From Fusarium oxysporum f. sp. lycopersici 4287 (taxonomy: Eukaryota; Ascomycota; Sordariomycetes; Hypocreales; Nectriaceae): DNA of 64,000 nt. A program made the position numbers and the translations under genes. The DNA lies in NCBI RefSeq assembly GCF_000149955.1, contig NC_030989.1:4901188-4965187 (forward strand). The letters are read 5' to 3'. The notes under the pieces are model-generated. The model worked only from the letters and a program-made list of their open reading frames with translations, was not told the DNA's origin and made no database searches. This document shows, one piece after another, positions 13,674-58,276 of the stretch (positions are counted from its first letter, which is position 1; each line of letters begins with the position of its first letter).

Positions 13674-15069
13674 CTACGAAACTGCGAGTAAAGCCTGGTG
13701 CTTCTCTTTTTCCAAAGTCCTATTCTCGACTAACAGCTCCTCACCTTCCAGCATTGACTTTGGTCGTTTGGGAGCCTTGGTCTTATCTAGGTTTGCGGCA
13801 AACTGCGACTCCAACGCCCCGGCATTCTGAAGAAGCACTTTGCAATTAGCACAAGGAGCCATTAAGTTCTTCCAAACATCACTGGTAGAGTATTCTTCAT
13901 AGTCGGGATACTCCGCCTTTTCCATGAATTTGCTTTTGAGAGCGAGGCCAGTCATTGAAGTTTGGTTTTGCTTTTTATCTCTGGGAACTGATTAGCAATA
14001 GAAAAGAATCTCCGCGATGCGAGCATACATACGCCAAGAATCTGATAGCGAATGGGTATGTTTCGGCGCAGTTTCCGTACGGTACCATGTTGCGATCGGC
14101 CTTCTTCTCCATGTTGGGAGCTGCCTTGTTTTTGAAGTCGTTTACCTGAACCATGGGCACTTTCTGACATCTGAATAGCATATCAAAACGGGCCTCTTGT
14201 GCACGCTCCCTCCAGGATCCCGTATATGTGTCAAGCTTCACATCCGTTTCGAACTTGTCCCCGGCATTGGATGCCCCCAGAAAGTATTGCCCCCAATGCT
14301 GCTTGGTGGTCTTGTCGACTTCAAGATACCATGTACATTGGAAAACAAACGGCAGATCACCCTCGCCTTGAATACTTGGCTTCCACTTCCAATTAATATC
14401 TATTTCGCCCGCGATACGGGAACACCAACGCCCGTAGACTGCTGTGAGAGGGAGGTAGAAGTTGTTTTTGTCAGCAGAGGCCGGCGCTGGTCCCAGGAGG
14501 CTAAGGAAAAGACCAAGTAGATCGAAAGGGCACCACCATTGCGGTACTGGACCTAATGAAGCCCGTGGACTATGCCTGTAGTACCAACCACTGACGATGA
14601 ATTTGGATGATGTTTCATCATCCTTTTTCCAGTCACGGTTCATCAGTCGTGCAATATGCGATGATGGTTGCTTTGTTATGTCCTTGTACAGACTCCCCTT
14701 CTCGAGCCTGTTGCCTTGGTCAGTAATTAGGCACTGAAATCCATAAATGTAGGTAAAAATGTGCAAGACTTACGAAAGAAGGACCACACGATTGTGAATT
14801 TCCGTAAGGAGAGTACCTAATTCTTTATCTCCGGGTTTGATTCCACCTGCGTCAGCGGTCTCCTTCATCCATTCAAAGATCTACTACAGCATTAGCCTTG
14901 AGCCCATCCTGAAATAAAGGCATGAGAAAGAGATGGAGCCTAGTGCAAGTACTCGGCTAGAGGCTACAGTACACACCTTGTCTCTATTCCATTTATAAGC
15001 TGCACGGAACCAACCTTCCCCCGGATTTGCCCAACGAGGTTCCAGAAGGGCGAATGGTTGGCCTGGCAT
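13674..15069 (-). CDS. Uncharacterised protein with a C-terminal cytidine-deaminase-like fold
   Basis: Four exons (14977-15069, 14774-14880, 14033-14707, 13674-13980) with introns of 96, 66 and 52 bp give 393 aa. The C-terminal third has the zinc signature of the deaminase superfamily: C280-A-E282 (in GNCAETYPF) and PC335-x-x-C338 (in APCANCK), about 55 residues apart. The Cys-Ala-Glu form, with Cys for the usual His, is known from deaminases of the polymorphic-toxin type and related fungal families. Residues 1-250 are Trp-rich (WFRAAYKWNRDK, PQWWCPF, WKWKPSI) and not recognised. No signal peptide is seen. The substrate (free base, nucleotide or nucleic acid) cannot be told. The C-terminus is basic and helical. 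It is divergent from a small gene at 15373. Confidence 0.75.
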
Positions 15070-16790: not shown

Positions 16791-19700
16791 CTAATGCTTA
16801 ACCACTTCCACAGATAGAGGAGGATTGTCCACTATCATCACGTTCGGCTCCACCAAAGGGAGTGCAGGATTCCTGCAATATCTCGCCCGAGACTGGATAG
16901 TCGCAGTTGCGGTACCACGCCCTGGAGTATTGATACTAGCCAACCCAAGCAGAAAGCTCAACTCAGGGACAGCCGGCGCCATGACCCAGCCCTTCTCAGC
17001 CCTAGGAAGTAACCGAATGCGCAAATAGTACTTATCCTGATTCTGGTCGTAAAAAGTCGTTGGAATCACATTGAAGCGCAGGTTCGTCAACATATGTGCA
17101 CCAGGTCCAGTGTAGTTCGACATCAAAGCGTATGTGGCATCGTTTGGTAAACCAAGTGCTATGTCAATGGTGACTTCCATGAGTAAGTACTGGTTGATAT
17201 CGCTTTGTTTAAGGACGATTGAGAAAATGAGGTCTTGGGGAAGATTGAAACTATCTAGGACGACTTGGCTGTGATTGTCGGCTAAGTTGCTGCTGACGCG
17301 TATGAGGAATCGGGGTGCTGATGCGGGCTCGGATCCAGGTGGTCTGGCTTTATAGGTACGAGTTCCGACTTGGCTCTGATGGGCGTTGGTGGGGATGTTG
17401 TCTGGGTCGCTGACACTTGGGCCTTGATGAAGTGGCATCGCTCGAACATGAGGTGACAGGTAGTTTGAGAGCACATCAAGTGGAGAAACGTAGTCCGCAG
17501 CTCTCACGAAGCTATCTTCATGACTTGAATCATTGTACTCATCTTCATCATCTGGATCATTCTCTACTGGCGCTGCAGAGACGTCCGCACCACGGGCAGA
17601 AAGGTTCTTGACCCTAACGGCTTCCATCATGTTGATAGTTCTCAACTCCGGGCTTCCGTCTCCCAAGTCAGGAGGAGCCAAGCCTGCTATCGCCTGCGCA
17701 GCCGTAGCACGCTTAGCCATGTTGATGGTCAGGTTATAAATGGGATCGTTGAGTTGCATTGCAAACAGTGCAGAAGTCGAAGCGTCATCAGCAAAGTAAG
17801 GTCTGCCAGTTCCTTCTTGCTTCCCCATCATATCTTGCAACACTTTGAGCTGTACATCTGCAAACGCGGGAAGGCGTAGTATACGCAAGTCATTGAGACT
17901 TTGGTTGGGTACAGAGTTCCATATGAAGATGTTTTTCTCCTCGGCTGGAGTGTATATGATCTCTTTGAGTGCCTTGTGTCTGTCCTTATCTGTTTCCCTA
18001 GTGCTTTGGTCAACAGTATACTGCCGTCTGATATTTACCTTGACCTCGGCAGTGTCAAGGCCACGAGCAACAGCAAACCGCTGCTGGTGCGCCGGCTGCG
18101 TGAACACGAGGGATGAAAACTGAGCAGAACCAGGGACACGGTCCATGAACGCCATCATGACGCCATCCGCAACAATCTCATGCCGCAAAAGAGGTGCACC
18201 AGCTGGGGGATCCTGACCAGCGGCTTTGAGGGCGCTATCGTTGGACAAGACCTCGACGCGCAGATCGGGAAACATGGTCACCAGGTCTGAGCGGAGGTAG
18301 AAGCCATAAGCAGGTATTTGGACACGATGGCCCATTCCATCAGGTGTACGACCGATGTAGTCATTGAGTGCTTTCTTGATAGCGACGCGGTCCTCGTCAG
18401 TACCGAAATGGTTGCCGAGGGATAGAGCGCCATCGATGAGGGCGTCGACCCAGTTCCTGTCGATATGGAAGAAGCGTAAGTTCTCGGGCTGGAGGTAACT
18501 CGGATCAGGTATGAGATAGTGCGCTGGTACACCGGCGAGAAACATCCTGTCGATCAACCATGAGAGTACCGTCATCCAGTCTGAGGATTGCGGATCATTT
18601 GTCTCATCGTAAGGGTCGCCCGATCGACTTGAAGCCAGTTTGCGAACAGAATCCAGCGCAGCAGCTGGGTACTTGTCCTCAAAGAGAGGCGAAGCAAAGG
18701 AGAGCGTCGGTCGATCGCGACGCTGGAGCTTCTTGTGATGCCATCGACGCTTGGCTCCTCCATGCCTGAACACGGGTCTGCCAGGCTTTCTCTGATCAGG
18801 TGCTTCCCCAGGCTCTTGAGGCTCAGAACCACGCTTCTGAAGATGGATATCTGCAAGTCCCTTGACCATGGAGGAAAGATCCTTGAGAAGATCATCGCGA
18901 GTGCGAAATGCAGTATCCTTAACCTCCTTGACGGCATTGATCTTGACTCGCTTCGCTGCGGCGGCGTGCACTGCTGTTCTGACACGTCCCAGCGCAGCAA
19001 CAAAGGCTTGATCACCGAGGGCCATAGTACGGCCAACCTGCCAGGCCACAGAGTATGTCACATCCATGATGCCCAAATTCTTGTCAAGAATTTGCAAGTC
19101 CACGCCCGAGGTTGAGCATTTGGTCAGATGCTCCAAGGTAGGCACATAAGTGGGAGTGAAAGGACCTCGATACAGCGCTACAGTTGCCTCGCCTGTTTGA
19201 ACGCGGTATTTGACCAAAGTATAACCATCGCTCAGACGGCGACCAACAAGCTGCTGGGCTTTGTCTGCAGACGCTTTCAGAGGCGCTATGACTTCATCCG
19301 GGGCTCGCAACACATCGAGAGTGCGACCCAGATTCTCAAAAGCATCTGGTACGTTGAGTGTATTTGGTGGGAGGACTGTATAGTTCCAGCTATAAAGGGA
19401 GCAGAGGGCAACATAGCGGTGGTTCTGGCCCGGATAACTCATGGCCTCCACGCCTTCGATGGATACTAGATGTGCGCACATGGTGGTTGGAATGACGTTG
19501 TCAAGCGGTCCCGATCTGTTGCCGACGACGATGCTAAAGACAGCTGTGTCCTCAACACCAGCGAGAGCCATTCCAGAGCCGTTGATCTTGCGCACGTGGG
19601 AAAGGTATTTGTACTGTGATGTATCCGGCCCACTGCCCTTGACTCGATTACCCTTATCGTCAAATGTCGAGAAGAGACTGGTGAAAAGCCCTGGCTGTAC

Positions 19701-20486
19701 GAAGATGAAGTCCCCACGGCTATCTTTCATAGAAGGTGGTCCGAGTCTGTCAGTGATTGGTGTTGTCACATCAGACTTTAGCTTCCACAAGTCATCGATG
19801 CTCATGTTGACTGTCATTGTGGATGACTGCTTGACGGGCTTGAGAACGCCATCGCTAGTACCGCTGAAGATACTGCCTGCACCGTCCAGATCCTCCGGGG
19901 GCAGTCGAAGCTCGTCTTGGGAAAATGCAAGCACGACAAGCCATGGCACACGGTTGCGCGGTATGCTGCTTGCCTTATCCGCGCCCAAGGCTACTCTCTT
20001 CATCTGCGCCTTGAGATCCATGTTGGTCCCGCCCTTTGGACTTCCCAACCTCTCCCACGGGAGGTGCGGATCTGTCAAGACGACATGCGGCAGGATTCTA
20101 TGATCATCGCTGTAGCCTGCTGGAGGATATGTCGAGTGGACGCTTCCATCCGGCAGGGAGAATTGCGGTGCATCAACGTAGAAAGGCTGCTCTGCCTCCA
20201 AGTTGAGTTGTTCGCCGTTTGCTTGGATGGTTTGTTTTACTGAGATGATGTGCTTGGGGCCCGCTTCGATGCCTGGGGCCCAGAATGAATTCAGCTTTTG
20301 TTCGCCTGGGGGCAATGGATCAATCTCATCCTCGACGATCTTGCCGTCTGCGAGGACGGTCATGGACTGGAAAGCGTTGAGACGGGCATCAGCGCGATTG
20401 GCGGCGACAACGCGGCGAGAGTGCCGTATTGTTAGATGGCGAGGAGAGTCTATGCGTGTACTCTTGCCTCCTGGATAGATGCCCAT
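16791..20486 (-). CDS. Very large uncharacterised protein of bacterial-like type (LPWER family)
   Basis: One uninterrupted exon encodes 1231 aa. The frame is open further upstream, but ATG at 20486 in ACACCATGGG is the best start. About residue 130-145 reads ILPHVVLTDPHLPWERLG. About residues 645-690 read GVPAHYLIPDPSYLQPENLRF and then DRNWVDALIDGALSLGNHFG. I recognise these from very large uncharacterised bacterial (mostly actinobacterial and myxobacterial) proteins, where GVPFxYLVPDxxxLPPESIRFF is typical. This is memory, not a search. A basic linker (KRRWHHKKLQRRDRP) splits the two halves. No signal peptide, transmembrane segment or catalytic motif is seen. The absence of introns over 3.7 kb stands out. 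The function is unknown. Confidence 0.8.
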   Translation of the reverse strand: MGIYPGGKSTRIDSPRHLTIRHSRRVVAANRADARLNAFQSMTVLADGKIVEDEIDPLPPGEQKLNSFWAPGIEAGPKHIISVKQTIQANGEQLNLEAEQPFYVDAPQFSLPDGSVHSTYPPAGYSDDHRILPHVVLTDPHLPWERLGSPKGGTNMDLKAQMKRVALGADKASSIPRNRVPWLVVLAFSQDELRLPPEDLDGAGSIFSGTSDGVLKPVKQSSTMTVNMSIDDLWKLKSDVTTPITDRLGPPSMKDSRGDFIFVQPGLFTSLFSTFDDKGNRVKGSGPDTSQYKYLSHVRKINGSGMALAGVEDTAVFSIVVGNRSGPLDNVIPTTMCAHLVSIEGVEAMSYPGQNHRYVALCSLYSWNYTVLPPNTLNVPDAFENLGRTLDVLRAPDEVIAPLKASADKAQQLVGRRLSDGYTLVKYRVQTGEATVALYRGPFTPTYVPTLEHLTKCSTSGVDLQILDKNLGIMDVTYSVAWQVGRTMALGDQAFVAALGRVRTAVHAAAAKRVKINAVKEVKDTAFRTRDDLLKDLSSMVKGLADIHLQKRGSEPQEPGEAPDQRKPGRPVFRHGGAKRRWHHKKLQRRDRPTLSFASPLFEDKYPAAALDSVRKLASSRSGDPYDETNDPQSSDWMTVLSWLIDRMFLAGVPAHYLIPDPSYLQPENLRFFHIDRNWVDALIDGALSLGNHFGTDEDRVAIKKALNDYIGRTPDGMGHRVQIPAYGFYLRSDLVTMFPDLRVEVLSNDSALKAAGQDPPAGAPLLRHEIVADGVMMAFMDRVPGSAQFSSLVFTQPAHQQRFAVARGLDTAEVKVNIRRQYTVDQSTRETDKDRHKALKEIIYTPAEEKNIFIWNSVPNQSLNDLRILRLPAFADVQLKVLQDMMGKQEGTGRPYFADDASTSALFAMQLNDPIYNLTINMAKRATAAQAIAGLAPPDLGDGSPELRTINMMEAVRVKNLSARGADVSAAPVENDPDDEDEYNDSSHEDSFVRAADYVSPLDVLSNYLSPHVRAMPLHQGPSVSDPDNIPTNAHQSQVGTRTYKARPPGSEPASAPRFLIRVSSNLADNHSQVVLDSFNLPQDLIFSIVLKQSDINQYLLMEVTIDIALGLPNDATYALMSNYTGPGAHMLTNLRFNVIPTTFYDQNQDKYYLRIRLLPRAEKGWVMAPAVPELSFLLGLASINTPGRGTATATIQSRARYCRNPALPLVEPNVMIVDNPPLSVEVVKH

Positions 20487-21515
20487 GGTGTCTTGTTCTT
20501 GCTCAGTTGTGTGGGTTTGCCTATGGTGGACGTGTCCAGGAGGTTTCTTAGCTGGGACTTGGGGAGAGACTCTAGAGACGCGGTATAATTGCCATGAAAG
20601 TGAGCGATGTAAAACGGCCAATATTTGCTGCCCGCTCTTGGTCAGAAAAGCCTCCTGTGCACAACGCTGCTTCACCTGTTGTGGCAACGGTGGATACATC
20701 CACGATGAACAATTGACCCGTTTCAAGCATTATCTGCATATTCTAAATCTCATTAACGGGGTGTAGGTGTCGGGAGGCATTGCAGAACTGCTGCGTCTTC
20801 GGGGTACAGCAAATGGAGGCCTGATGCATATTTTTACAGGCTGTGCGATTGTAGTTTATCATGCTAGAGGGGTGTCTGTATTGCCCAAAGCTATATGGGC
20901 AGCATAAACGTATCGGATGAAAGCCCCAGAGACATTTCATGCATAGCACCATCAATGTTCCGACCTGCAGATGCGGCCCGGGCGGGGTAAAGTGACAACG
21001 AGATCGAAATATGTAACCTATTCCTAATCGAGCAAGGACTATCGAAATCATGATCTGATCTGATATGCAGGAGATGAAAAAGGGACTTGTCAAGTGAAAC
21101 ATGCGCGAAACATACGTAATCATTCATTCGGCCCGACGGCGCCGCTGTGGATTAGCACAGATCGTTTCTCTGCCGTTTGTTTCACATGCCGTGTCTCACT
21201 TACTGTACCCATTCTACATCCCAGACTATATGCTTTGATGCCAATGGCCTTATCGGTTATACAGAAGTGGGGTAAAGCCTACCGAGAAGCAAAGGTTGTT
21301 CAGCTCATGCAGTGTGCGTATCTCGACTTGGTGAGGTTACGAAAGATGCATGCGGTGAGTAAAGCCAAGATCGTGACGAGAGAATGAACGGCATTGAGGA
21401 AAGAGGGAAGAAGAACGGGGTTCTTGGACTGCCCACCCAAAGTTACAGGAGACTTCATGAGTTCTCCTTGAACGAAAAGCCTCTCACCCTAAACTGCCAC
21501 GAAACCAAGTAAATT
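20487..21515. other. Divergent intergenic region between the 1231-aa gene and the lectin-like gene
   Basis: About 1 kb. The open frame of the 1231-aa gene continues to 20726, but that stretch is probably its 5' leader. The remaining open frames are short and unsupported. The region would carry both promoters. Confidence 0.45.
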
Positions 21516-22509
21516 ATGGCTCCCATCACTACAGTAATCGACAAGACCACCGCCAGCGATAGCGTCGTTAAACTCTTCTACTCCACCGGGAAAGCCCAGC
21601 TCGGTCTTGCGTTATGGTCAGGCACAAAAGATGCAGATCCTGAGAACCCCATTCAGACGCCTCAGGAAGTTGGAAATGACCAGTACATCCTCAATCCATC
21701 TCAGATGGCAAGCGTCAATTCCCAAGGCGTAGAAAGGGTCTTTGCTCTTACAACAGACAACCCTTTCAAAGTCACCCCAAATGATTCGTACAGTCTATCA
21801 GAGATTTCCGAGTCAAACCAGAAGGAACTCCAGAGTGTGTCCATTGGCAACACTACGCTGGCTGCCTGTGGGGATGGTGACAATGCTTGGGTCTACTATA
21901 GCAGGTGAGTGAGGCACCGATATGGACTGGAAAGAAGTCGATTGCTAGACAGCTAACAACCTTCAACAGGAACATGGGTAACGGCAGAACCCTTGTAGAA
22001 TTGGACCTCCAGACTTCACGGAGCACTGACCTCACATGGACCCATGATCTCTGGATCAACTCTTTCGCCGCTGCTTGGTACGATGACACAACTGGGAAAC
22101 GCTGCGTAATTTACGAGGGAAGTTACCTTGTAGATTATGTCGTCGACAGCGGCTCACGTAAGTATCTCGCTCCCATCTTTCGAAGACTTCTGCTAATTGC
22201 CTCAAAGCCGGCACTGCAATATCCTCAACTGGAGACATGCAGCGCAACACTCCAGTAGCCGTCGCATTTGACAATAGCAAAGTCTTTCTTTACTACTGTG
22301 GCAGAGGCGCCGCCGGTGGCATTAGGCGCACCATCAGGACTGACAATACTTGGGGTACCTCTACACTTATTGATAGTCGTACCATTTCTCAGGATAGCCA
22401 GCTCACTGTGGTGAGGGCCAATGGCATTAATCATTTGTTCTTTGTGGCGAGGGATCAGAATGAGGAGGAGGATGATTACTTTGTGCATTACCCGGATGAG
22501 ATCAATTAG
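21516..22509 (+). CDS. Lectin-like beta-propeller protein (fungal fucose-lectin type)
   Basis: Three exons (21516-21904, 21970-22157, 22208-22509) with introns of 65 and 50 bp give 292 aa. Repeating strands of the type VKLFYSTGKAQLGLALW, AWVYYSRNMGNGRTLVEL, VFLYYCGRGAAGGIRR and NHLFFVARDQ recur about every 45-60 residues, each with an aromatic pair followed by a variable loop. This is the look of six-bladed fucose-specific fungal lectins and their relatives. No signal peptide is present, as in many cytosolic fungal defence lectins. It sits inside the block of giant genes and converges on the 1398-aa gene with 222 bp between stops. The sugar specificity cannot be read from the sequence, and another propeller family is possible. 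Confidence 0.7.
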
Positions 22510-22731
22510 TTTGCATAGCTGGCAATCAAAACTCATAGAGCAGTTGGACCGTCTTGTGAATGTGACAAACAACATCACATACATAAAGAATATGCACAGA
22601 TATGAGATAAAACGATGATAACCTTCTGTTATGAAGCTGTTTGTGGCCCTTCTCATATTGACTGCAATTAAAAGAAACATACTCCATATTGACCTTGACT
22701 TGCTGGACTAGAGTAAATACAAATTGACCAT

Positions 22732-25700
22732 TCATGCATTCTGAGGATTACTCGGAGCAACGATCGGGTTTCTTAACTGCAAGAACCCCTCAACGGCAGC
22801 ATACGGTCCATCCTGGAACGCAGGCTTAATCAAATCACCCTTCTTCTCAATACCAAATGCATTATAAACAGCCTGTAGATCCTCATCTCCCCCTTCCGCG
22901 ACCTGGTCCTCAGCATACGGCTGAAACCAACTCCAGTCTCCTCCACCAAGAGAAGGCAGCAGTAAGTTACGCTTTGGGATATCCCGAGCGTTCTTACTCG
23001 TCAGCTTCTCTGCTTCAAGATACCCAGGCACATCGTTGACGGGCATGGTCAACGGCCCTGCGTGGAAGAAGGCTGTCATGGTGTCCATGGCTTTTTGCCA
23101 CGTCCACGGTGGTAGGAGCAGCTCTGCTGCTGGTAGGAAGGATGAGTACGCGTGTACGGGTGTGAAGGGATCTAGGATAGCGCCGAAGATTGACATCTGG
23201 GCGTTGCGTTGGTTCTCATAAGCTTGAGGCTCAATGGCGGGTGAAGAACCGGAGAATGGGGGCTGCCAGAAGGGACTGAAGATTGGATACTGGTCGGTAT
23301 CAAGACGAATCAATGGATCCGTAGAGTTGCCATCTGGAGTGAAGAAGGTCTTGATCTGATCATAGTTCAACTCATCAGACCCAGGACCCGTTGTGTCAAA
23401 GTAACCGACAAGTCCATCGTAACCTGCCTCTTCATTTCCGAGCCGTAGCTGGAGCTCATAGTATGGGGTTTTGTCATCAGCATCCGATGGCTTCAGGAGT
23501 GTGCGCTCAGGATCAACCACCTTGACCTGAGTACTTTGGATATCAAGAGGCGGTCCGCTCAGCTCAACGGACCAGCCCGTATTGACGAGGGCAAGTGGCT
23601 TCCCTACGATGGAGTTGAGGAACTGCGCGTATGAATCAGGAGCTGGAGGGAGCTTCTGCTGCGCCGTCGTTATCATGCCCCAGAACCCGAGGAGATATTT
23701 CGGATCAGCCAACTTGGAGATGAGGATATCAAGCTCTCGTGTATCAGGAGTGGGCTGTGCATCTGGATCAGGACTGAAGGGTAGCCATTTGGGTGACTGG
23801 AGAGTCCCCAGAGGACCGCCGACGCGAACCTCACGGTAGAATGTACCGTCTGGGAGAAAGATCTGTATACCGTAGTCGGCATAGTTGGTGATGACCCAAC
23901 CCCATATTGGCGTCTCCCATTCCGTGACAGGGCGCCATGTCGCGGCGCCTGGAGAAGCTGGGCTGCCACTTGGATCATCAGCGATGCGTCTGACAAACTT
24001 GGCGTTGACGCGCGCCGGCTGATTCATCTGCGGTTGCAGCTGCAGAAACTCAGACTGCTCCGGGTTATCCTTGATCACCGTATTCGCGTACTTCTGCCCA
24101 TCTAGTGTGACCTCTTGCGGCGCGTAAAAGTTGCTTATGCAGGGGTAAATTGGCGGTGGCCCATCCCTTCGTGGTCGCTGATCAATGGCCATGAGCGACT
24201 GGCCAAACTTGTCGATGACGTTGAACTTGCGGAACCGGAACTGGCCGTGCGTCACAGGCTTGAAGGGGCAGTGCTCACTGTCGGTGAAGTTGACCAACGC
24301 GGCGTACGGGGTAAGCGCTGAGTTACCGTCGATGAGCTGCAGTTTGTCCTGTGTCAGGCCAGCGGGGTCAAAGGTTGCTGCTGTGAGGACAGAGCTTGAC
24401 TCTCCGTCGCGACCGACGACTTTGTTTTCGGGCTTGAGATGACTGCCCTCTGCTTGCGTGACGAGGCCACTCATGAAACCCGAGAGTGGTGATGAGAGAT
24501 AGGACAATTCACTGATGTTTGCAAGGAGATTGTCTCGATCCTCTTCTGGAAGATACTCGTCGAGAATACTGGGCGGGGTGTTCTGGAAAAGCTGCTTGAT
24601 CTTGGCACCCAATGCAAAGCTGGGCTGAGGCAGAATCAAGACACGGCCAGACAAGACGCGAATGTCCTGCTTCTTCTCGCCCTGCCACTTGGACAAAGCA
24701 TCCCAAAGTGGTGGAGTTGTGTCGCTATCAGAGGGAACACTGATTCCATATCTGACCAGCTTGTTCTCGGAGTGACGGGCGGTGTGTTCATCTAAGCTCC
24801 AGAACTCAAACGGAATGTGAGTGTATTCCACCTCCCACTCAGCGTAGAGAGGAAACCATGGCTGTCTGTCACCCCATTGGTCACGCCAGCGCTTGTCGGT
24901 AGTCAATTTGTCATGGAATTGAGGATAGAATTTGCCTTCGCCTGGTGTACCTGAGTCATTGCCTCCAGGACGGAGAGCGTGAAATTCGGTGATGAGTGCT
25001 TTGGCAGCTGCTGTCAAGACAGTGGGCAGTTTGTTGTCGACCAGACTTGAGATAGTGTTAAGGTTGCTGGGTAGATCTTGATCGTTTTGAATGGTCTGAT
25101 ATGGGGCCCGAATAGCGAGATTATCGAGATAATCAAGCGCCCAACCAGATGGGATACCACCGATGAGAACGGTGGGATCATTTCCACCGTAGAAGACAGG
25201 CTCACTTGTCGACTCCACCGTGGCCAAGAGGCTGTTTCCTAACAGAGTGGCGACCTGTGATTCAAGCTGTCCGATGCGGGTTTGGAGTCCATTAATACGG
25301 CTCGAGATCCTGCCAGCTTCAGCCTTGAATGCTTCATTCTGGTCATTTCCTTGATTATCACTCTGACCTAGATCACTTGCATATTTCCACCAGAGAGAAA
25401 ACATGTCCCAGCGATACTGCAGCATCGCTCGGTTGCAAGAGTCTAGCAGGGCCTGGGTGAGGTTCAATTGATTGATACTCTGGATGGCTAGAGGGTCAGG
25501 CTCCTTGGGCTGGTTCGTGCTCTTATCATCAGCCTCCGCGAAGAAATATCGCGTGCCACCTGGAGAGCGATCGTAGGACCAGTTGTAGACTGAGTCTTTG
25601 GCCTCTCTCTGACCCTCGACACCATCATCGCGCGATTGAAGGAGAGATTCAAGGGCCAGGATATCTTCCTCTAGTTTAGCGACATCCTCTGAATCCCCGC

Positions 25701-26928
25701 TGGCGTCGCCGCGTGCGTGACAATAAGCTAATAACGCATCCATTGGAGTGGTGCCAACTGCGACTGCAGCCTGTTTTGGATCGCGCAGACGATCGTTGAA
25801 TCCATCGGCTGGGACAGTCTTGGGTTTGTTCTCGTGATCCCAGGTCACGTCGTACATGCAACCATGACAGAGGATGCGGATTTGACTTTTGAGATCCATC
25901 CATGGGTCGGGATTTGCTTCATCTGTCCCTTGAAGTGTCATGAATAGCGACTGCAGGTTCTCTCCATGAGTAAACTCGGCACCCGCTTTCCATAGGGGAT
26001 CAACGGCATCTTTCCAATGCCATCCCAGCACGTAGTAGCTGGATTTGGCGTAGTCCAGATACGATGGCTCCTCTTTATCTCCATATTCGAAGTTGTCCAA
26101 GATGCTGAAGACATTGGCATTGTGCATCTGGAAGTCAGCAAAGAGCTGGTTTCCACTTCGCAGGAGACTGATGTCTGGAGGCTCAACAGTGGGGTTCGGA
26201 TTCTCAGTCCACTCAGCCAATGGTGTCTTGCGCCCGATAAAGACCTCAGCTTGCTCATTGATGTTGACATCAGTGCCGGCGTGTCCGAGCACGAATGGCG
26301 CTACATCAGTCTGTAGATCTGCCTGGATGGGGATATCTTCCAAGGACCAGACATAATCGCTCTCAACGACCCAAGCTTCGTACTCTCGGCCTTTGAAAGC
26401 ATCTTTGGCACTCGATGGCTGGATGCTATCCAATTCGAGCTTTCTTATGACGATCCAGCGTGTTGGAGGCTGTAGAAAGTCTGGGGTTTGATGAGGGGAG
26501 TTGTCACTGGCCGTGGTGGTTGCAGCATCAAGTCCCCGTCGCATTCTCTCTCTCTTCTTTCTAGATTCTGGTACAGAATCGGTTGAGGAGACTCCCGATC
26601 TGTAGAATCGGGGAAGTGTCCAATGGACATAGACGCCATGACGATGGCGGAGCGGTTTTGGCTCCGGACGACCACCCAGGTCAGTCAAGCGGGAATTGAT
26701 AGAGGCTGGGGCGGTATTGTGCAGAGCGACGTGATTTTGAACATCACTCTGGAGCAAGAAGCTATCAAGCCTCAAGAAAGTGTAGTTGGGTTGAGTGATG
26801 GGACAGATGCGCGCCGTAGTGTCTTGATCACTGCCCGTACCGCATACAGCTGGATTCAGGACGAATGCATCCAGTTGCATGGGCACCAAGGCGACTTCAA
26901 AGTCCTTAATTCCAGTATCTTGAGTCAT
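22732..26928 (-). CDS. Very large uncharacterised protein of bacterial-like type (HWxLP family)
   Basis: One uninterrupted exon, 1398 aa from ATG at 26928; the frame is open nine bases further but only from TTG. Near residue 100 is HGVYVHWTLPRFYRSG and near residue 158 PPTRWIVIRKLEL. In bacterial counterparts I recall GVHLHWALPDALT followed by FPxVPNRWLV, so order and spacing agree. Residues about 540-575 form a heptad-rich coiled coil (ISSRINGLQTRIGQLESQVA). The C-terminal third has Pro-rich segments and PFxPVHAYSSFLPAAELLLPPW, a candidate packing or interaction surface. No signal peptide or membrane span is seen. Strand alternation with its neighbours means it can share a promoter with the DUF6603 gene, whose start is 867 bp away. 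The function is unknown. Confidence 0.8.
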   Translation of the reverse strand: MTQDTGIKDFEVALVPMQLDAFVLNPAVCGTGSDQDTTARICPITQPNYTFLRLDSFLLQSDVQNHVALHNTAPASINSRLTDLGGRPEPKPLRHRHGVYVHWTLPRFYRSGVSSTDSVPESRKKRERMRRGLDAATTTASDNSPHQTPDFLQPPTRWIVIRKLELDSIQPSSAKDAFKGREYEAWVVESDYVWSLEDIPIQADLQTDVAPFVLGHAGTDVNINEQAEVFIGRKTPLAEWTENPNPTVEPPDISLLRSGNQLFADFQMHNANVFSILDNFEYGDKEEPSYLDYAKSSYYVLGWHWKDAVDPLWKAGAEFTHGENLQSLFMTLQGTDEANPDPWMDLKSQIRILCHGCMYDVTWDHENKPKTVPADGFNDRLRDPKQAAVAVGTTPMDALLAYCHARGDASGDSEDVAKLEEDILALESLLQSRDDGVEGQREAKDSVYNWSYDRSPGGTRYFFAEADDKSTNQPKEPDPLAIQSINQLNLTQALLDSCNRAMLQYRWDMFSLWWKYASDLGQSDNQGNDQNEAFKAEAGRISSRINGLQTRIGQLESQVATLLGNSLLATVESTSEPVFYGGNDPTVLIGGIPSGWALDYLDNLAIRAPYQTIQNDQDLPSNLNTISSLVDNKLPTVLTAAAKALITEFHALRPGGNDSGTPGEGKFYPQFHDKLTTDKRWRDQWGDRQPWFPLYAEWEVEYTHIPFEFWSLDEHTARHSENKLVRYGISVPSDSDTTPPLWDALSKWQGEKKQDIRVLSGRVLILPQPSFALGAKIKQLFQNTPPSILDEYLPEEDRDNLLANISELSYLSSPLSGFMSGLVTQAEGSHLKPENKVVGRDGESSSVLTAATFDPAGLTQDKLQLIDGNSALTPYAALVNFTDSEHCPFKPVTHGQFRFRKFNVIDKFGQSLMAIDQRPRRDGPPPIYPCISNFYAPQEVTLDGQKYANTVIKDNPEQSEFLQLQPQMNQPARVNAKFVRRIADDPSGSPASPGAATWRPVTEWETPIWGWVITNYADYGIQIFLPDGTFYREVRVGGPLGTLQSPKWLPFSPDPDAQPTPDTRELDILISKLADPKYLLGFWGMITTAQQKLPPAPDSYAQFLNSIVGKPLALVNTGWSVELSGPPLDIQSTQVKVVDPERTLLKPSDADDKTPYYELQLRLGNEEAGYDGLVGYFDTTGPGSDELNYDQIKTFFTPDGNSTDPLIRLDTDQYPIFSPFWQPPFSGSSPAIEPQAYENQRNAQMSIFGAILDPFTPVHAYSSFLPAAELLLPPWTWQKAMDTMTAFFHAGPLTMPVNDVPGYLEAEKLTSKNARDIPKRNLLLPSLGGGDWSWFQPYAEDQVAEGGDEDLQAVYNAFGIEKKGDLIKPAFQDGPYAAVEGFLQLRNPIVAPSNPQNA

Positions 26929-27795
26929 GATGATCAATTGGCGTACGTTTTTTGTTCTCGGTACGGCAACGATTGTATCTGAACAAGGCCGAGTTCAAAT
27001 CAAGTCTTCGATGGGGGAGCTATGGCGATGGTCTATTCCAACTACCGCATCTCATGATGAGACCAAGACAACGTTGAGCCAGAAGCCGGCTAAAATTCCT
27101 TCTCCATCTGGTAGACCAAATTAGAAACCAGTCTCGCAAGTACTGACGGATTCACATGTCCCCTCATCATGCCTTGATTTCTCAGTCGATCTCATCTTTC
27201 CTCCCCCTCTTTTCTCTTTTCGGGCCAAGCCAACACGGCCCGTATCGCATGCACGGCAGCAGATCTGGATCTACCCGCATTCTTGTGTCACAACCTGTCC
27301 AACAATCGAGATGTGGGGGTTTTGAGACAAACCTGATAGTCGCATGCAGCATGCAGATGAGGTGGAGACGCAGTGAGACAGGCCTAAACACTTCTCACGC
27401 CCCCCATCAACCAAACGTACATGCATTGATCCACATGCATTTAACGGAAAGCTGTAATGGCAACACCAAGTTGCTGGCCTGCTTGAGAGCGTATTCGGGA
27501 ACATGTTTCTCAGGGTCTATCATGGTCCCCAGCACTGAGCACGACAAGAATCCTAATGTCCTTCCTTTCTCCTGCGTATTCTAATCATTCGCTGTTTCAT
27601 CTTTCTATTCTAACCTTTTGTTAACTCCCCAATTCTCTGCCAATTCATATCACAACACTACCCTTGAACCTTCAATACTATCTTCTCAGTTTCCTGGTGC
27701 AAGAGGAGCAAGCACCCACCGCGTCTTGCATTCAGTACGCAAGACACAGAACTTCTCAGTTCTTTCTTTAGATATTTTTCCCCTTGGCCAGCAAA
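26929..27795. promoter_or_regulatory. Divergent promoter of the 1398-aa and DUF6603 genes
   Basis: 867 bp with no supported gene. The last 200 bases before 27796 are pyrimidine-rich (CTTTCTATTCTAACCTTTTG), typical of strongly expressed fungal leaders. Coordinated expression of the two giants is plausible. Confidence 0.45.
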
Positions 27796-30700
27796 ATGAC
27801 TATTTCGTCAGACTCCAATGATCGTAATCCTTCTAACAGGGCTTTGAGGCCATCCGACGCTGCAACTTACAGCATCTATGCCAGCTCTGCGGGTCAAAGT
27901 CCCGGTGAAAATATTCAGGTTTTGGCAGCAGGAAGTAACCTGGATAAGTTCGTGGCTGGCTTAAACTCCAACCAAGTCATCACTTTATCCAACGCGCCAA
28001 ACCCAACTGCCAATTTCAACGATTCTGACGAGACCATAAAATGGTTTCAGAACCTTGATGCCGATGCCAGTGGCTCCATCACCGTCGATGGGTCAGCAAC
28101 AAAGAGCATTGAAAGCTTTCAATTTTCCCTCTCTCAGCCCTGGCCACTCGAATTCAGCTCCGCCAGCGATGTTCTGCTCTTCACATTTGGGTCCACCGGC
28201 CTTCTGGGTGGCGATGACACAGGGTCCCGAATTGAAGCACCTGGCATTGACTCTACTGGCAACATGCTGATTTGTGGTCTTGACTTTGCCAACATGGAAG
28301 ATATCACCGGGTTCACAGTAAAGGACGTCTTCAAGAACGCTAATCAAGAAGGGATGACTGATTACATCCCTCTTGTCATCCTGGGCCTCGAAGTGACATT
28401 GAACAAGCCTCCCGCTGACGCAAAACCCAAGAGGAACGCTCTGTGGTTCGTCCCATCAGCGGATAAACGGCTCGAGACCCGTCTACAGTTCCAGTTGTCA
28501 GAGTTCGACGACTTGCAGAAACTCTTCTCAATTGCCTTAAACGGCCTGGTGATTGAGAGCGCAGACGTCGTATACAAGAGCAAAATGCTACTGGCTGTGA
28601 CAGAAAACGGCGAGCAGCCTCTCTTCGATGGTCAAGTGACATTCAGTATCGAATGCTCCCTCAATAGCGCTGGAGGTACAGTCTCTATGCTCGCAGGCGT
28701 CGAATTCACTGCTACCACGATTGACTTTACTTTCATGTTCCTCTCCCCAGATCCACTGGCTGGAATACTGAGCTGGCTGGCTGGACTTGCGGATGATGAA
28801 GAAGTTGAGACGATCGTCAATGAAATTCTGGGCAAGGAAGAAGGTGGACAAAAGGTTCTGCCGGCCGCCAATTTGCGAAGACTGCGCATTGGACTTGATA
28901 CAAGAAAGGATCCGCAGAATCCCAGACTCGGGTCCTTTTCTTTTGACATCGAGGTCTCTGCGAACTTTGGCCGTGGTGAGAGCACTGATACTCCTGTCTT
29001 CTTGGTCACGTACAATTGGAATCGGTCTAGCGGTACTTATGGTACTCTTTCTGGACAGCTATGGAACGGTAAGTGGTACCATGTTTCGGCAATTCTCCAA
29101 ATTCGTTGCTGATTGAGACCATCTTCTAGACTTTGACACATCCGATGACCTGGACCTGGAACCAGAAGGAGAGAAGTGGGCTATTTTGAAGCCACTGACG
29201 GCTTCACCTGCGTTGTCTATCGAAATTGCCACTCTGATCCCTGGCCAGACAGTGGTCGATATCCCTGACACCCTGCCTTCCCAGATAACCGTTGCGTCCA
29301 TTGAGTTATCACAGGAATCGTTTTCCCTTAGCTGCCAAGCGACTGCAAACCCGCCATCTCCAGGTTCAGCTCCTCAACCCTATCTCGGCGAGGTTGTTCT
29401 CGCTGCCTACTTCAACTGGGGCAGCAACTCAGGGTTTACCTTTGACTTTGGGATATCAGTCCTGATCGACCCTCCAGAGGATTCTGAGTTCGATCTTCCT
29501 GCTTCCTTTGTCGGAACTCTCGGGTACAACTCTGCTAAGAAGTCCTGGGAGCTCACAGCTTCCATCAATGGATTGTATGCAGCTGTGCTAGCCGAGTTCT
29601 TCCACGATGATGAGAAAGACCATGTTGGACCGCTGATCAATTCCATTGCCATTAATCCTTTGTCTGTTGAGTACCCCATATGAGCAACAGAGCGGTAATA
29701 ATACACAAAATCTGTGAGCAGCAGGTTCGCTATCTCTGGCGACTTTGGTCATTTGCGGGGTTGAGACTAAATCTCGACTTCACCTACACGTCTAGTGGCT
29801 TTTGCTTTCTCGGCAGCACTCAACCCAGCTGAGAGGAATGCCACGATCGGCGACATCTTGACAGATCTTCTTGGTTCTTCGTTTGACATACCAGACTTTG
29901 TCTCCGACACCTTGATTGTCGGCGACAATCAGGACGCGTTCCGTATCAACATCCAGAAGATGAAAGACGATTCCAACATCGAGTCATTCCAGTTCCTTGC
30001 CAGTCTCAAAATTGGCCAACTTCAATTCCTATTCTCCCAGCTTCACAGCACCAAATGGGGTCCCAAGGATCCTTCAAAGCGACTATTCAAAGCAGCCATC
30101 TATGGCTTTGGGAACATGAAACTTGAGATCCCTCTCGTCGGTACGCTGTACCAGCCACTTGATGAGCTGTACTTCCTCTTCGCCCAGGATCCCAAACCGC
30201 CAAGAGCACCTGGACAGCTCACTGGGCTCACGCGAGAGGATATTGGTCTACTCAACAGCGGCGTATTGAAAAGCGATCAGCTGCTTGTTGCTGATAAGAT
30301 TAAGCCTGACAAGGCACAGCCAACCGACCTTCTAGTGCCGTCTGGATGTCACTTCGCAGTCATTATTCGCAACATAGCCAAGGGTGAGCGCGCGTGTCTG
30401 CTCAGCTACGGTTTCATGACACCCAAACCTTCGTCCTCCCAAGCCCTGGTCTCTGGTGCCGAGCAAAAGGGCAGAAGGCGCACCGAGGAAGAAATGGACG
30501 ATGGAGGTCCCAGTGCCCAAGCGCCATTCAAAAAGGATACAGGGCCGGTGGCCATCAGCAACGTTAGTCTCAAGTACAAAGCGAAGACACTGTCGATCGT
30601 CTTTGACGCTACCTTCCAGCTTGGACCGATTGGATTCTCTCTTCTTGGCTTCACCCTCAACACCCGATTCAAGACACTGGACGAGTTACCAACAATCAGT

Positions 30701-32855
30701 GTCAACATCGATGGCTTGGCAGCATCCTTTGACAGGCGTCCATTGACAATCGCTGGTATCATCGTGCACGGCAATGATGGCGCCATGGATTACTACGCCG
30801 GTGGTCTGATCATCGGCTTCCGTCCCTATCAGTTCCAAGCAGCCGGCTTCTACGGCGTCATCACGCTGCCAAACAGCAGCAAAAGTTTCCAGAGCGTGTT
30901 CGTGTTTGCAAAGCTCAATGGTCCACTCATGACGCTTGCGTTTGCTGAGATCAGTGGAATCTGCGGTGGTTTTGGATACAATAGCAGCGTCAAGTTGCCT
31001 TCAGTGGACCAAGTGTCGGATTTCCCCTTCATCAACAGCGGTCGTCTCAGCGATAACGAGAATGCGCAGCAAGTGCTTATGGAACTCGTGGACCCCTCAG
31101 CTGGTGGATGGTTTCAGCCACTTGACAGCACGTACTGGGGCGCGATTGGCATGAAGCTCTCTGCGTTCCGCATGCTGAGCGTTGACGCAGTGGTCGCTGT
31201 ACAGTTCGGTGACTCGGTCAAGCTGGGCATTTTCGCTGCAGCAGTCTGCGACATTCCGTCTTCCAATTCACGACTCAAGCTGGCCCATGCTGAACTGGGT
31301 ATTGCAGCTGTCTTGGATTTCGACTATGGATTCCTCAAGATCGAGGCGCAGCTATCACCCCGCTCATACATCCTCAGTCCCAACTGCCATCTTACCGGCG
31401 GCTTTGCTCTCTGCTACTGGTTTGATGCACCGCTCGCTGATCGGGCCAGAATAGGAGACTTTGTCTTCTCCTTGGGCGGGTACCACCAAGCTTTCCGCGT
31501 TCCTGTCGGTTATCCTAACCCCCCTCGGCTAGGTATTAGCTGGGACCTGGGTGGTGGCTTGTCCATCTCTGGAGAAGCATATTTTGCCATCACTACCAAG
31601 GCATGCATGGCTGGTGGACGTCTCCATGCTGCGTTTAAAGCAGGACCTCTCTCTGCCTGGTTCGATGCCTTTGCCAATTTCCTTATCAATTATCGGCCCT
31701 TTTACTTTGACATGTCAGCTGGTGTCTCAGTCGGAGTCGGATTCAGCATCGATTTCTGGTTCATCCACATTCGCATTTCAGTCCAAATTGGTGCTGAGTT
31801 GTACCTCTGGGGACCACCTGTTGCTGGTCGCGTTCACGTTGACTTCTGGATCGTTGCTTTCGATATCAATTTTGGCGATCACCACCCCAAGATCGACCCT
31901 GTCAGCCTGTCCGAGTTCTACGAACTTGTTCTTCAGGACTCGCCTGCATCATCCTTTGCCTCTGCCTCTGCCCTGGTTACAGGGAAACAGCAGCAGGAGC
32001 CCATTGTAGCGTCCACTTTGACTAGACCCAAGAATGAGGCACATAACTTCCTTGCTGAGTCTGGATTGTTGAACCCTGATGACCAACCAGAGCGAGGACA
32101 GGAAGACCCCTGGACTGTCCGAGCTGGTGCTTTTGTGTTTGTTGCAGAGTGCAAGATGGCCATAAGTACGGTCAAGACAAGCGAAAGTGGTACTCCAATC
32201 TTTCAAGGCAGTGACGTTTTCAGCAAGCCAATGGGACTGACAACACCCATGAGTTCGACCCTCCAAATTCAAGTGATCCATGAGGATGGAATCGACCGCG
32301 AAGAGGACTGGCAGTTCGAGAGATATACCCAGATGCTTCCGAGCGCTCTATGGGCAAAATGTAAGTTCTCTTTACCGCTTCGGAAACCCTAGCTGACCCA
32401 TCCCAGATGACCGCCGGACTGATCCACGCCAGAGTGGAAACAACGTCGACGATTTGCTCAATACCAATGATGGCAGCCCTCCTCTCATGACAGGCGTGAG
32501 AGTCACTGCACCCAGGCCTACCATGTCTCCTGATCCATTCCCAGCTTACAAGGTTGCAGACGCAGACCTCCAAGAGCTGACCGCAGAGCGGAAGTTGCCT
32601 GTCATGGTTACCGCTGAGAATGCATGGGAACCAGTTAAGCCGAATGATGTTGTGAAGCAGCGATACGAAGACATTCATGAGGCTTGGGTGAACCCTTCGC
32701 TGAAAGAAGAGGGACAGCAAAGCTTCGTGGGCGCCTTGGCCGAGGGCTTGGGATGGAGTGACGTGGGTCAGTTGAAGAGCCTTGCTGGAATTCCGGGTAG
32801 GCTGAAGAGGGGCTTTATGAACATGTATGTCGCGTCTCCATTACTGACTGCTTGA
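27796..32855 (+). CDS. DUF6603-type giant protein
   Basis: Five exons: 27796-29068, 29130-29670, 29725-29747, 29796-32360 and 32407-32855, giving about 1616 aa. The third intron is ambiguous: a 48-bp form with weak donor GTCATT at 29748 and a 36-bp form with donor GTTGAG at 29760 are both in phase. ATG at 27796 is the first in frame. The C-terminal half contains SAWFDAFANFLINYRPFYFD, then FSIDFWFIHIRISVQIGAEL, LWGPPVAGRVHVDFWIVAFD and INFGDHHP, which is the DUF6603 hallmark block. It has many alternating hydrophobic strands, suggesting a long beta-rich or lipid-contacting fold. No signal peptide is present. A donor at 32824 might extend or change the last residues. DUF6603 has no known function. 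Confidence 0.8.
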
Positions 32856-51353: not shown

Positions 51354-51923
51354 TGTAGTGCGTTCAGTGGCTTGTGGCTAACATGAACCAGCTTGAGACT
51401 GAGTAGAGAGCGAGGGTATTAAAGTTCTAGATAATTGCATAAACAATGAGCCGAGGAAACTAGAATAATAGTTAGCCGGCAGATTAAAGTGTCATAGCAA
51501 TGGTGCGGGCCAGATTCCGGAATCAGGTCGCCGGAGTTAGAAAGGTATATCCACGGCGGAGAATTCAGCCGCGTTGCTTACCCGACAGTCAACATCTCAC
51601 GCCAAACCTCCGCATTCACATGCCGAATCATTTTGTGGGGACAAAGTCGAGAATGATTTGTCATGTTTGGTCAATGCCGTCCTTGAGCAGTGCTGTGAGG
51701 AAGAAGGAGAAAAGGAAGACTGGATTTTTTTTCAATGATAAGAGCAGTACTAATCCCACTAGGCTGCTCACCTGGTGTTTTCGAGGCACAAATCATTATA
51801 TTCATTAGTCGGGCATACAACTGATCCTCACTGTAGTCCAAACTATTTCTACACCACTCTCTCTCCTCTTACAGTCAGAACCTACAGACATCCATCTTGC
51901 CCTACCAACGAACGCACGCCGCC
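51354..51923. promoter_or_regulatory. Divergent promoter between the RidA and dehydrogenase genes
   Basis: 570 bp with no supported gene. The right end is pyrimidine-rich (ACTCTCTCTCCTCTTACAG) next to the dehydrogenase start. Confidence 0.4.
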
Positions 51924-52874
51924 ATGAAACCAGCATCCGACCAACGCATCATCTATTTTGTAGGCACAAATCTAGGCCACGCAGTCACCAACCAAATCCA
52001 CGACATAATTGCCCAAGATCTTTCTCTCAACTGGCGACTTCAAGCAATTGATAGCCCTTCACTCCAGGAGTTCTTGGGATGCATGCGAGGGCATCAGTTC
52101 GGCGGTGCTGTAATCACCATCCCCCACAAGATCGCCATCATGTCTCATCTAGACCTAGTCGATGACATAGGCTCCCTTTTAGGGGCCTGCAACAACGTAT
52201 ACAGATCATCTAGGGGACTCCTCGTGGGCACCAACACTGATTGGATCGGAGTGCGCGACTCGCTATTGCAACTCGTCCAGCAGCATAGCTCAATCAGGGT
52301 GGCAGAGGCTGTCAACGATGGTGCAAATACTCCGAGAAGGAATATGCCAGCATTTGTCGTCGGTGCTGGTGGTGCTGCAAGGGCTGCAGTGTACACTCTA
52401 CATTCTGAACTCGGTGCAAGTATGATTTACATCATCAATCGGGACGACAGCGAAGTTGAGTCCTTGGTCAACGACATAACAAAAGGGTATAAGAGGTCGT
52501 CTCTCGTGCCGCCGACTATAGTTCATCTAAGAAACCTGGATGAGGCGTCATGTGTTGAGGGTGCATTCTATGGCGTAGGGACAGTACCTGACTTCGAGCC
52601 CAAGACGCCAGAAGAACTTACCGCCAGAGATGTACTTGAGAAGGTTCTGAGCAAGTCACAGGGCGTCTTCCTCGACATGTGCTACAAGCCTCGCGTAACT
52701 AGAAACATACAGCTAGCAAGACAGAAAGATTGGACTACAGGAGATGGAGGACAAGTGGTAGGATGGCAACTGAAGGCCCAATGGACTCTTTGGGCCGGAA
52801 GGAAGACGGGCGAGGCGATTGACCTGGATAGAATGATTGGGACAGTTCACGAGATAGTTGAGACCCTCCCTTAG
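51924..52874 (+). CDS. Quinate/shikimate dehydrogenase-like protein
   Basis: Single exon, 316 aa; ATG at 51924 is the first in frame. N-terminal substrate domain: IIYFVGTNLGHAVTNQIHD, then FGGAVITIPHKIAIMSHLD with the catalytic Lys of the PHK motif. LLGACNNVYR and LVGTNTDWIGVRDSL follow, containing the conserved Asn and Asp of the family. Nucleotide domain: FVVGAGGAARAAVYTL near residue 146, and IYIINRDDSEVE. C-terminal: FLDMCYKPRVT and DGGQVVGWQLKAQWTLWAG. The active-site residues look intact, so it is likely an enzyme. In fungal quinate clusters (QutB, QA-3) it oxidises quinate or shikimate. Context with a QutD-like permease and QutA/QutR-like regulators supports this. Confidence 0.85.
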   Translation: MKPASDQRIIYFVGTNLGHAVTNQIHDIIAQDLSLNWRLQAIDSPSLQEFLGCMRGHQFGGAVITIPHKIAIMSHLDLVDDIGSLLGACNNVYRSSRGLLVGTNTDWIGVRDSLLQLVQQHSSIRVAEAVNDGANTPRRNMPAFVVGAGGAARAAVYTLHSELGASMIYIINRDDSEVESLVNDITKGYKRSSLVPPTIVHLRNLDEASCVEGAFYGVGTVPDFEPKTPEELTARDVLEKVLSKSQGVFLDMCYKPRVTRNIQLARQKDWTTGDGGQVVGWQLKAQWTLWAGRKTGEAIDLDRMIGTVHEIVETLP

Positions 52875-53358
52875 TTCGTCTAGTAGTGTTCATGCACACT
52901 TTTGTTCAATTGCATACGATTCCTCAGGAGCTTTCTTTTACCAACATGGAGCGTAGATACGCGGCGCAATGTGTCGCATGGGTTCTCAACCAGGCGGTCG
53001 TGTCGCTAGCAGTGGTAGGTAGTCCGACACGTGTCGCGTATAGTGTCACTGTAGGCCTAGTCGGAATCATCGGTTCTCGGTTATATGGGCCCGGGTCGCC
53101 GGAGTAATGATTATGAGGAGACAAACCCCAGGCCTTAGGCTCAGCCGGGGCTCAAGTCCGGGGAAAACATGGGGAAAGTGGACTCGGATTAAAGCTAACA
53201 TCAGCACAAAGGACTTGGAGCTAATATCATGGTAGTAGTATAAAATATGTTATCTTGACCTCGTCTAATTTATGATTTCCCACTCAATTTTGACTTAAAT
53301 TGATTCACACTTCAACAGACATTTATCCATTGCCTATCTAGAATCGCTACCGCAAAAG
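52875..53358. other. Intergenic, promoter of the permease
   Basis: 484 bp without a credible gene. It contains a CACGTG within GACACGTGTC (53027-53032), on an imperfect palindrome. Confidence 0.4.
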
Positions 53359-55211: not shown

Positions 55212-55247
55212 GTAGGCGGGTCTTAGGTAGTGCACCTTGAGAACCCT

Positions 55248-57876: not shown

Positions 57877-58276
57877 GTGTCTAGATATTCACTTGCCACC
57901 AGAGGAGAGAATGTGAGTTCAAGGACAGGTAATGCCGCGTTATCTTGTGGACCTCCAATCTGAACGATGATCTACACTACTAGGCGTGTACCTGGCGTCA
58001 CGACGCTTGCCTGATTGGATATGGTGACCTCGGCTTTTCTCCCGGCAAAATCTATACCCGAGTGCCATCACTGCTATTAACAGTCTAGGGTGGTCTCATT
58101 TGTTCTCTAGTTCCGCTCTCGTATCAAAAACTTTGGATCTGTGCGGATCGATTGTCGAGTTTGAGCTTAAGTGTCGAGAGTAGCATTCTTCCCCAACAAT
58201 CAACCTTCCTTACGTCAAGATCAGACATTGATCCCGCCCTCTCAGCAATACACAGATTTATTTCTAAGAGGAAGCC
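57877..58276. promoter_or_regulatory. Divergent promoter of the activator and repressor homologues
   Basis: 400 bp between divergent start codons, the arrangement in which the QutA and QutR homologues could be controlled together. No specific operator was identified. Confidence 0.4.

What the first reader, a model, noticed from the sequence alone, without database searches (positions are those of the whole stretch)
16791..32855. Candidate undescribed system: two intronless bacterial-like giants, a lectin-like propeller and a DUF6603 giant on alternating strands
Three very large proteins (1231, 1398 and about 1616 aa) plus a propeller protein of 292 aa occupy 16 kb with strands - + - +, so two divergent promoters could drive all four. 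The 1231-aa (LPHVVL...LPWER, YLIPDP...NWVDALIDGA) and 1398-aa (GVYVHWTLP, RWIVIR) proteins have motifs I know from large uncharacterised bacterial families, and both are intronless, unlike most neighbours. DUF6603 proteins have long beta-rich strands. None has a signal peptide. A secreted or intracellular assembly, for example for membrane binding with the lectin as targeting part, is possible but purely speculative.
Basis: partly seen in the sequence, partly recalled or inferred. Interest (0 to 1): 0.9.

Follow-up and report, generated by a model that had tools for sequence, protein, structure and literature searches.

The report
Cross-kingdom giant three-protein membrane machine
This fungal stretch carries three giant uncharacterised proteins whose genes also stand side by side in many distant bacteria, so they likely work together, and one of them is predicted to act on membranes, which would make them parts of a cellular machine not yet described.

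Summary
The window (Fusarium oxysporum) has single-ORF genes A (1231 aa) and B (1398 aa), a three-exon 292-aa gene and a DUF6603 gene D, on strands - + - +. For the three giants, the "system" guess is right. In this genome B occurs at three places, each with A and D within about 17 kb, in different gene orders. In bacteria the same genes form an operon, usually D>A>B. Among 80 loci found through D alone, A is beside D in 80 and B is present in 76; three of the other four run off the contig and the fourth probably does. They span at least six phyla. Gene C follows B in 62 of 80: a conserved head with variable tails, some of recognition type. A metallo-beta-lactamase-fold (11) or DNase-I-like (4) gene can precede D; one fungal copy has the former. 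D's predicted core is a long amphipathic beta-meander resembling porins and ApoB; the A model has no clear PDB match. I propose a soluble, receptor-aimed, membrane-acting complex. Assembly, membrane action and payload are inferred. The propeller is not shown to belong. D's frame is interrupted near 29.7 kb, unresolved. No paper searched names DUF6603.

The parts
16794..20486 (-). Gene A, 1231 aa, single open frame (stop codon at 16791-16793)
   Evidence: orthologues of the same length; profile match to the bacterial A family E = 1.6e-156
20487..21515 (.). Divergent gap between A and the propeller gene; possible shared promoter (inference)
   Evidence: sequence
21516..21904 (+). Propeller gene, exon 1
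21970..22157 (+). Propeller gene, exon 2
22208..22509 (+). Propeller gene, exon 3 with stop; membership in the module not shown
22732..26928 (-). Gene B, 1398 aa, single open frame
   Evidence: profile match to the bacterial B family E = 3.1e-221
26929..27795 (.). Divergent gap between B and D; possible shared promoter (inference)
   Evidence: sequence
27796..29068 (+). Gene D, exon 1 (intron 29069-29129, GTAAGT...TTCTAG)
   Evidence: intron 1 step, before the script stopped
29130..29671 (+). Gene D, second coding stretch; the frame is interrupted after this
29672..29795 (+). Interrupted stretch of D: weak introns or damage, unresolved
29796..32389 (+). Gene D, main coding stretch
30530..32140 (+). 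DUF6603 domain (PF20248), the amphipathic beta core
   Evidence: model and strand analysis on a bacterial relative
32400..32852 (+). Gene D, last open stretch (exact intron before it not fixed)

Best explanation
A, B and D are the fungal version of a three-gene module found from bacteria to fungi, and they likely form one soluble complex in which D is predicted to engage or perforate a membrane through a large amphipathic beta-sheet while a separate recognition protein would aim it at a target surface. Shown: the three genes stay together across phyla and through rearrangement; in bacteria they form an operon; in most of those operons gene C follows, with a constant head and exchangeable tails, some of recognition type; some operons begin with a hydrolase-fold gene (metallo-beta-lactamase or DNase-I-like). 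Predicted: D's core is a meander of about 20 long, strongly amphipathic strands. Inferred: D oligomerises or opens at a target membrane; A and B are scaffold or housing; C (in some fungi perhaps another surface-binding protein) gives specificity; the hydrolase, where present, is cargo. As no secretion signal is evident, release by lysis or an unknown route, or action inside the producing cell, must be assumed.
Against: No experiment, expression or complex prediction. D's fold matches are loose (TM-score at most 0.28 in the rows listed, rmsd about 12 A for the VIA rows), and an amphipathic sheet can also be a soluble beta-sandwich or a lipid belt. B was not folded. Eight of 12 scanned C tails had no Pfam domain above cut-off; 18 of 80 loci lack C; 65 of 80 have no detected hydrolase directly upstream of D; the C8 MBL is below Pfam's cut-off. 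DUF6603 also occurs without A or B detected (6 of 13 plasmid records with D, half of them haloarchaeal; one D of Streptomyces genome G001), and P. sonchi has A and B without D. The 80 loci were chosen by likeness to D proteins of module loci. The window's own D frame is interrupted.
Confidence: 0.42

Rival explanations
1. Lipid-carrier or storage particle: D is an ApoB-like amphipathic belt that wraps or moves lipid inside the cell or to its surface; A and B shape the particle; C attaches it to a surface.
For: ApoB100 is the top Foldseek hit; no secretion signal evident; intact in Gram-positive bacteria and fungi.
Against: Does not explain collar- or tail-fibre-like tips, or hydrolase genes at the head of some operons; fold match loose.
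Confidence: 0.2
2. Cell-surface or matrix assembly for adhesion or cell-cell recognition: A, B and D are structural and C is the adhesin.
For: Repeat-rich C with F5/8C, PLAT, Kelch and collar tails; a LamG-like gene between B and D in a cyanobacterium; D also hits the outer-envelope protein SlpA.
Against: No signal-like N-terminus seen by hydropathy in most members; hydrolase neighbours unexplained.
Confidence: 0.17
3. Intracellular conflict or anti-phage system: the complex senses an invader and the MBL or DNase-I-like enzyme is the effector.
For: The Embleya MBL beside D matches PADLOC models LmuA (E = 2e-13) and RTasMBL (2e-11); one Streptomyces plasmid locus lies near CATRA/CHAT conflict genes.
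Against: A, B, C and D match no PADLOC model (7 proteins); hydrolase present in a minority; tail-fibre-like C tails do not fit.
Confidence: 0.1
4. Ordinary old fungal genes that happen to be neighbours; no system.
For: Fungal A and B each form one well supported clade.
Against: Linkage kept in 80 of 80 (A) and 76 of 80 (B) bacterial loci and in three paralogous fungal copies with different orders.
Confidence: 0.02

Closest known systems
DUF6603 (Pfam PF20248)
   Same: D carries the whole domain at E = 7e-157.
   Different: Pfam states no function; the partners A, B and C are not part of the family entry, and some DUF6603 proteins have no A or B detected.
Tc (ABC) toxin complexes
   Same: Design: several giant subunits, a membrane translocator, variable payload (abstract and passages of PMC6868009; the rest recalled).
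   Different: No Tc, SpvB or RHS-type Pfam domain in the A, B or D proteins scanned (Tc domain names recalled); different gene set; also in fungi.
Extracellular contractile injection systems (eCIS)
   Same: Target-binding fibres with phage-tail features; reported in environmental microbes (passages of PMC8213781).
   Different: No sheath gene within 170 kb of D in 18 genomes, and 11 of 18 have no sheath match at all; far fewer genes than the 15-28 of eCIS operons.
Outer-membrane beta-barrels (porins, LptD, FhuA) and ApoB100
   Same: Fold resemblance of D's core.
   Different: No sequence match to PDB chains; hosts include Gram-positive bacteria and fungi; loose superposition.

Membership tests
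DUF6603 (PF20248) | Match above Pfam's gathering score | tested here: met
   523 bits against cut-off 27
D-A-B module | A and B families next to DUF6603 | tested here: met
   Window, C8 and C10 in this genome; 76 of 80 bacterial loci with all three
D-A-B module | Gene C with conserved head, as in 62 of 80 bacterial loci | tested here: not met
   Only a weak match, inside A of the C10 copy (E = 0.01), nothing in the window; hhalign probability 3.7%
Tc toxin complex | Tc, SpvB or RHS-type domains (names recalled) | tested here: not met
eCIS | Phage sheath gene in the same locus | tested here: not met
   PF04984: 14 matches in 7 of 18 genomes, none within 170 kb of a D locus
Phage structural module | Relatives of D or B in phages or viruses | tested here: not met
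   D patterns: no relative in viral contigs; one bacterial B: no match in 50,697 phage records
Known anti-phage defence systems | PADLOC model match of the core proteins | tested here: inconclusive
   None for two A, two B, one D and two C proteins; the MBL neighbour matches LmuA and RTasMBL models
Membrane beta-barrel | Closed transmembrane barrel | tested here: inconclusive

The most novel reading that the evidence does not exclude
A new class of receptor-aimed membrane-translocating machine, unrelated to Tc toxins and to phage-tail injectors, is shared by bacteria and filamentous fungi: D makes the membrane passage, A and B the housing, C or a lectin-like protein the exchangeable aim, and MBL or DNase-I-like hydrolases the payload.
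Probability: 0.28. Interest if true: 0.93.

Novelty: categorically new. Interest (0 to 1): 0.83.

Why it matters
The same set of giant proteins is kept together from cyanobacteria, Bacteroidota and Streptomyces to Ascomycota, so it most likely does something that needs all three, yet only one part has even a placeholder family name. If it is a targeted membrane machine it would be a delivery platform of a new kind, whose recognition parts evolution already swaps. The compact bacterial operons make that directly testable outside any pathogen.

Tried and rejected
Bacterial scan with the fungal B alignment: its two peptide patterns found no relative, although bacterial B exists. The patterns were too fungal, so this is no evidence of absence.

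Fusion of C's head to the tail of fungal A: considered, not accepted (E 0.0015-0.01 for one of three copies, hhalign probability 3.7%). The propeller as a relative of bacterial C tails: no hit. Phage or eCIS origin of the core: not supported.

Papers: 'DUF6603' and 'PF20248' are in 0 papers of the held library. Broader searches listed nothing on this set by title or the start of the abstract or returned 0 papers. Most subscription papers are not held.

Full report
What is in the window. The window belongs to Fusarium oxysporum: B is 99% identical to a protein of strain Fo47 and A 99% to a protein of f. sp. matthiolae. The own genome is held (61.2 Mb, 71 contigs). D carries DUF6603 at E = 7e-157. 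A and B match nothing in Pfam or NCBIfam at E <= 0.1. D's frame between about 29.67 and 29.80 kb is unresolved.

Recurrence inside the genome. Six-frame searches of the whole genome find D at five loci (six matches), A at four and B at three. The three B loci (window, C8, C10) each also hold A and D within about 17 kb, in different order and orientation: window A- B- D+, C8 D- B- A+, C10 D- A- B+. C8 has an MBL-like gene between D and B; Pfam's own match is below its cut-off (18.7 against 22.7 bits), but a profile of the bacterial operon MBLs matches it at E = 2e-10. C13 keeps remnants of D and A with stops. C9 keeps D in separate frames and a 52-residue fragment similar to the C8 MBL. The propeller has no other copy.

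Recurrence in other assemblies. Locus tags are often 1-6 apart, e.g. CDD83_511/513, DCS_00099/00101, TOPH_07324/07326, and ESCO_005589 (B), 005590 (D), 005595 (A). D shares fewer contigs with A (7) and with B (8); its list was limited to proteins up to 1.75 times the length of the exon used as query, which leaves out most full-length fungal D proteins.

Recurrence in bacteria. tblastn of the fungal proteins against 72,556 plasmid records found A in 8 and B in the same 8; 7 of these also had D, in the order D, A, B on one strand. The eighth, Paenibacillus sonchi, shows no D even against the P. polymyxa D, and its B seems to be in pieces. D without A or B was found in 6 further records, 3 of them haloarchaeal. 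With five D proteins of module loci (alignment A5), the scan of 84,980 species genomes confirmed 114 relatives, of which the best 80 loci were returned. Profile searches of these found A in 80 and B in 76. Three of the four without B end within A at the contig edge; in the fourth, L082, the cyanobacterial-type position of B would lie beyond the edge (and inference). Spacing is tight and on one strand: 71 in order D-A-B, 5 with B upstream. NCBI phyla: Actinomycetota 52, Bacillota 8, Pseudomonadota 7, Cyanobacteriota 5, Bacteroidota 4, Gemmatimonadota 1, unassigned 3. The sample is chosen by likeness to module D proteins, so it does not measure DUF6603 proteins in general. Of 20 loci given, 19 lie in 18 held genomes: there 25 of 26 D loci have A beside them, and A occurs elsewhere only as one 144-bp weak fragment. 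In four of the Bacteroidota, gammaproteobacterial and Lachnospiraceae loci read in detail A is two genes, and D reaches 2000-3200 aa.

Further operon members. Gene C was detected in 62 of 80 loci, starting within about 0.2 kb of B's end; it has a conserved head of about 250 residues and very different tails, many with tail-fibre-like repeats. Of the 18 loci without C, 6 end at the contig edge, 6 are of the cyanobacterial type, 5 are Lachnospiraceae and 1 is L113. Of 12 C proteins scanned against Pfam (4 from plasmid loci, 8 from the 80), 4 had a tail domain above cut-off (F5/8C in L016, PLAT in L017, Collar in L058, Kelch in L096), 2 had sub-threshold Collar matches and 6 none above cut-off. 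Two collar-type C proteins also match PHROG tail-fibre families. In cyanobacterial locus L094 a protein with a LamG-like domain lies between B and D. Directly upstream of D lies an MBL-fold gene in 11 of 80 loci and a DNase-I-like (Exo_endo_phos) gene in 4 of 80; Pfam supports 2 of 3 DNase-I-like and both MBL proteins scanned.

Descent. Quick maximum-likelihood trees of A (52 rows) and B (53 rows) put the 15 fungal rows, including the three paralogues of this genome, on one side of a fully supported branch (SH-aLRT 100). This fits one origin in fungi followed by duplication, with the cluster kept. Direction of transfer was not tested; the trees are unrooted and carry long-branch warnings.

How it most likely works. 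A soluble complex is made in the cytoplasm. D carries a large amphipathic beta-sheet that would meet or cross a membrane. A and B are the invariant partners, best seen as housing or scaffold. C, where present, would aim the complex through changeable tips, and the optional hydrolase would be carried or act beside it. Linkage, operon and tail variability are shown; the sheet and its amphipathicity are predicted; assembly, membrane action, export and payload are inferred. The window's propeller could be a fungal aiming part, but only its position ties it to the trio.

Comparison. The set fails the tested features of Tc toxins and eCIS, and no relative was found in the viral contigs (D) or phage records (B) scanned. 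It resembles them in design only: Tc from abstract and passages of PMC6868009, eCIS from passages of PMC8213781. No paper of the held library contains DUF6603 or PF20248.

Noticed in passing
window 51840-60454: Shikimate/quinate-type genes (Shikimate_dh_N; a kinase-dehydroquinase-dehydrogenase fusion) with a Zn2Cys6 regulator at 55471-57888, probably a quinate-use cluster.
   Followed up: no
window 13975-14643: Reading frame on the minus strand with a 'GNCAETYP' motif that recalls deaminase-type sequences (from memory); no Pfam family.
   Followed up: no
window 29672-29795: D's frame is interrupted where orthologues are open; weak introns, assembly error or damage.
   Followed up: partly
L031 (own genome C13:372001-382000) and L034 (C9:62001-72000): Decayed copies: remnants of D and A with stops at C13, D pieces at C9 with an MBL fragment nearby.
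   Followed up: partly
L014 1-6200: VgrG-like baseplate V genes, DUF4280, a pentapeptide-repeat and a GH-E nuclease gene some 8-13 kb upstream of D on a Paenibacillus polymyxa plasmid.
   Followed up: no
L096 3716-13405; L107 3950-13282: Single ORFs of over 3100 aa whose DUF6603 part is towards the C-terminus; the long N-terminal part of L096's protein has no Pfam family.
   Followed up: no
L020 and L021: Haloarchaeal plasmid DUF6603 genes next to other large unknown genes; their neighbours were not compared with A or B beyond tblastn.
   Followed up: no
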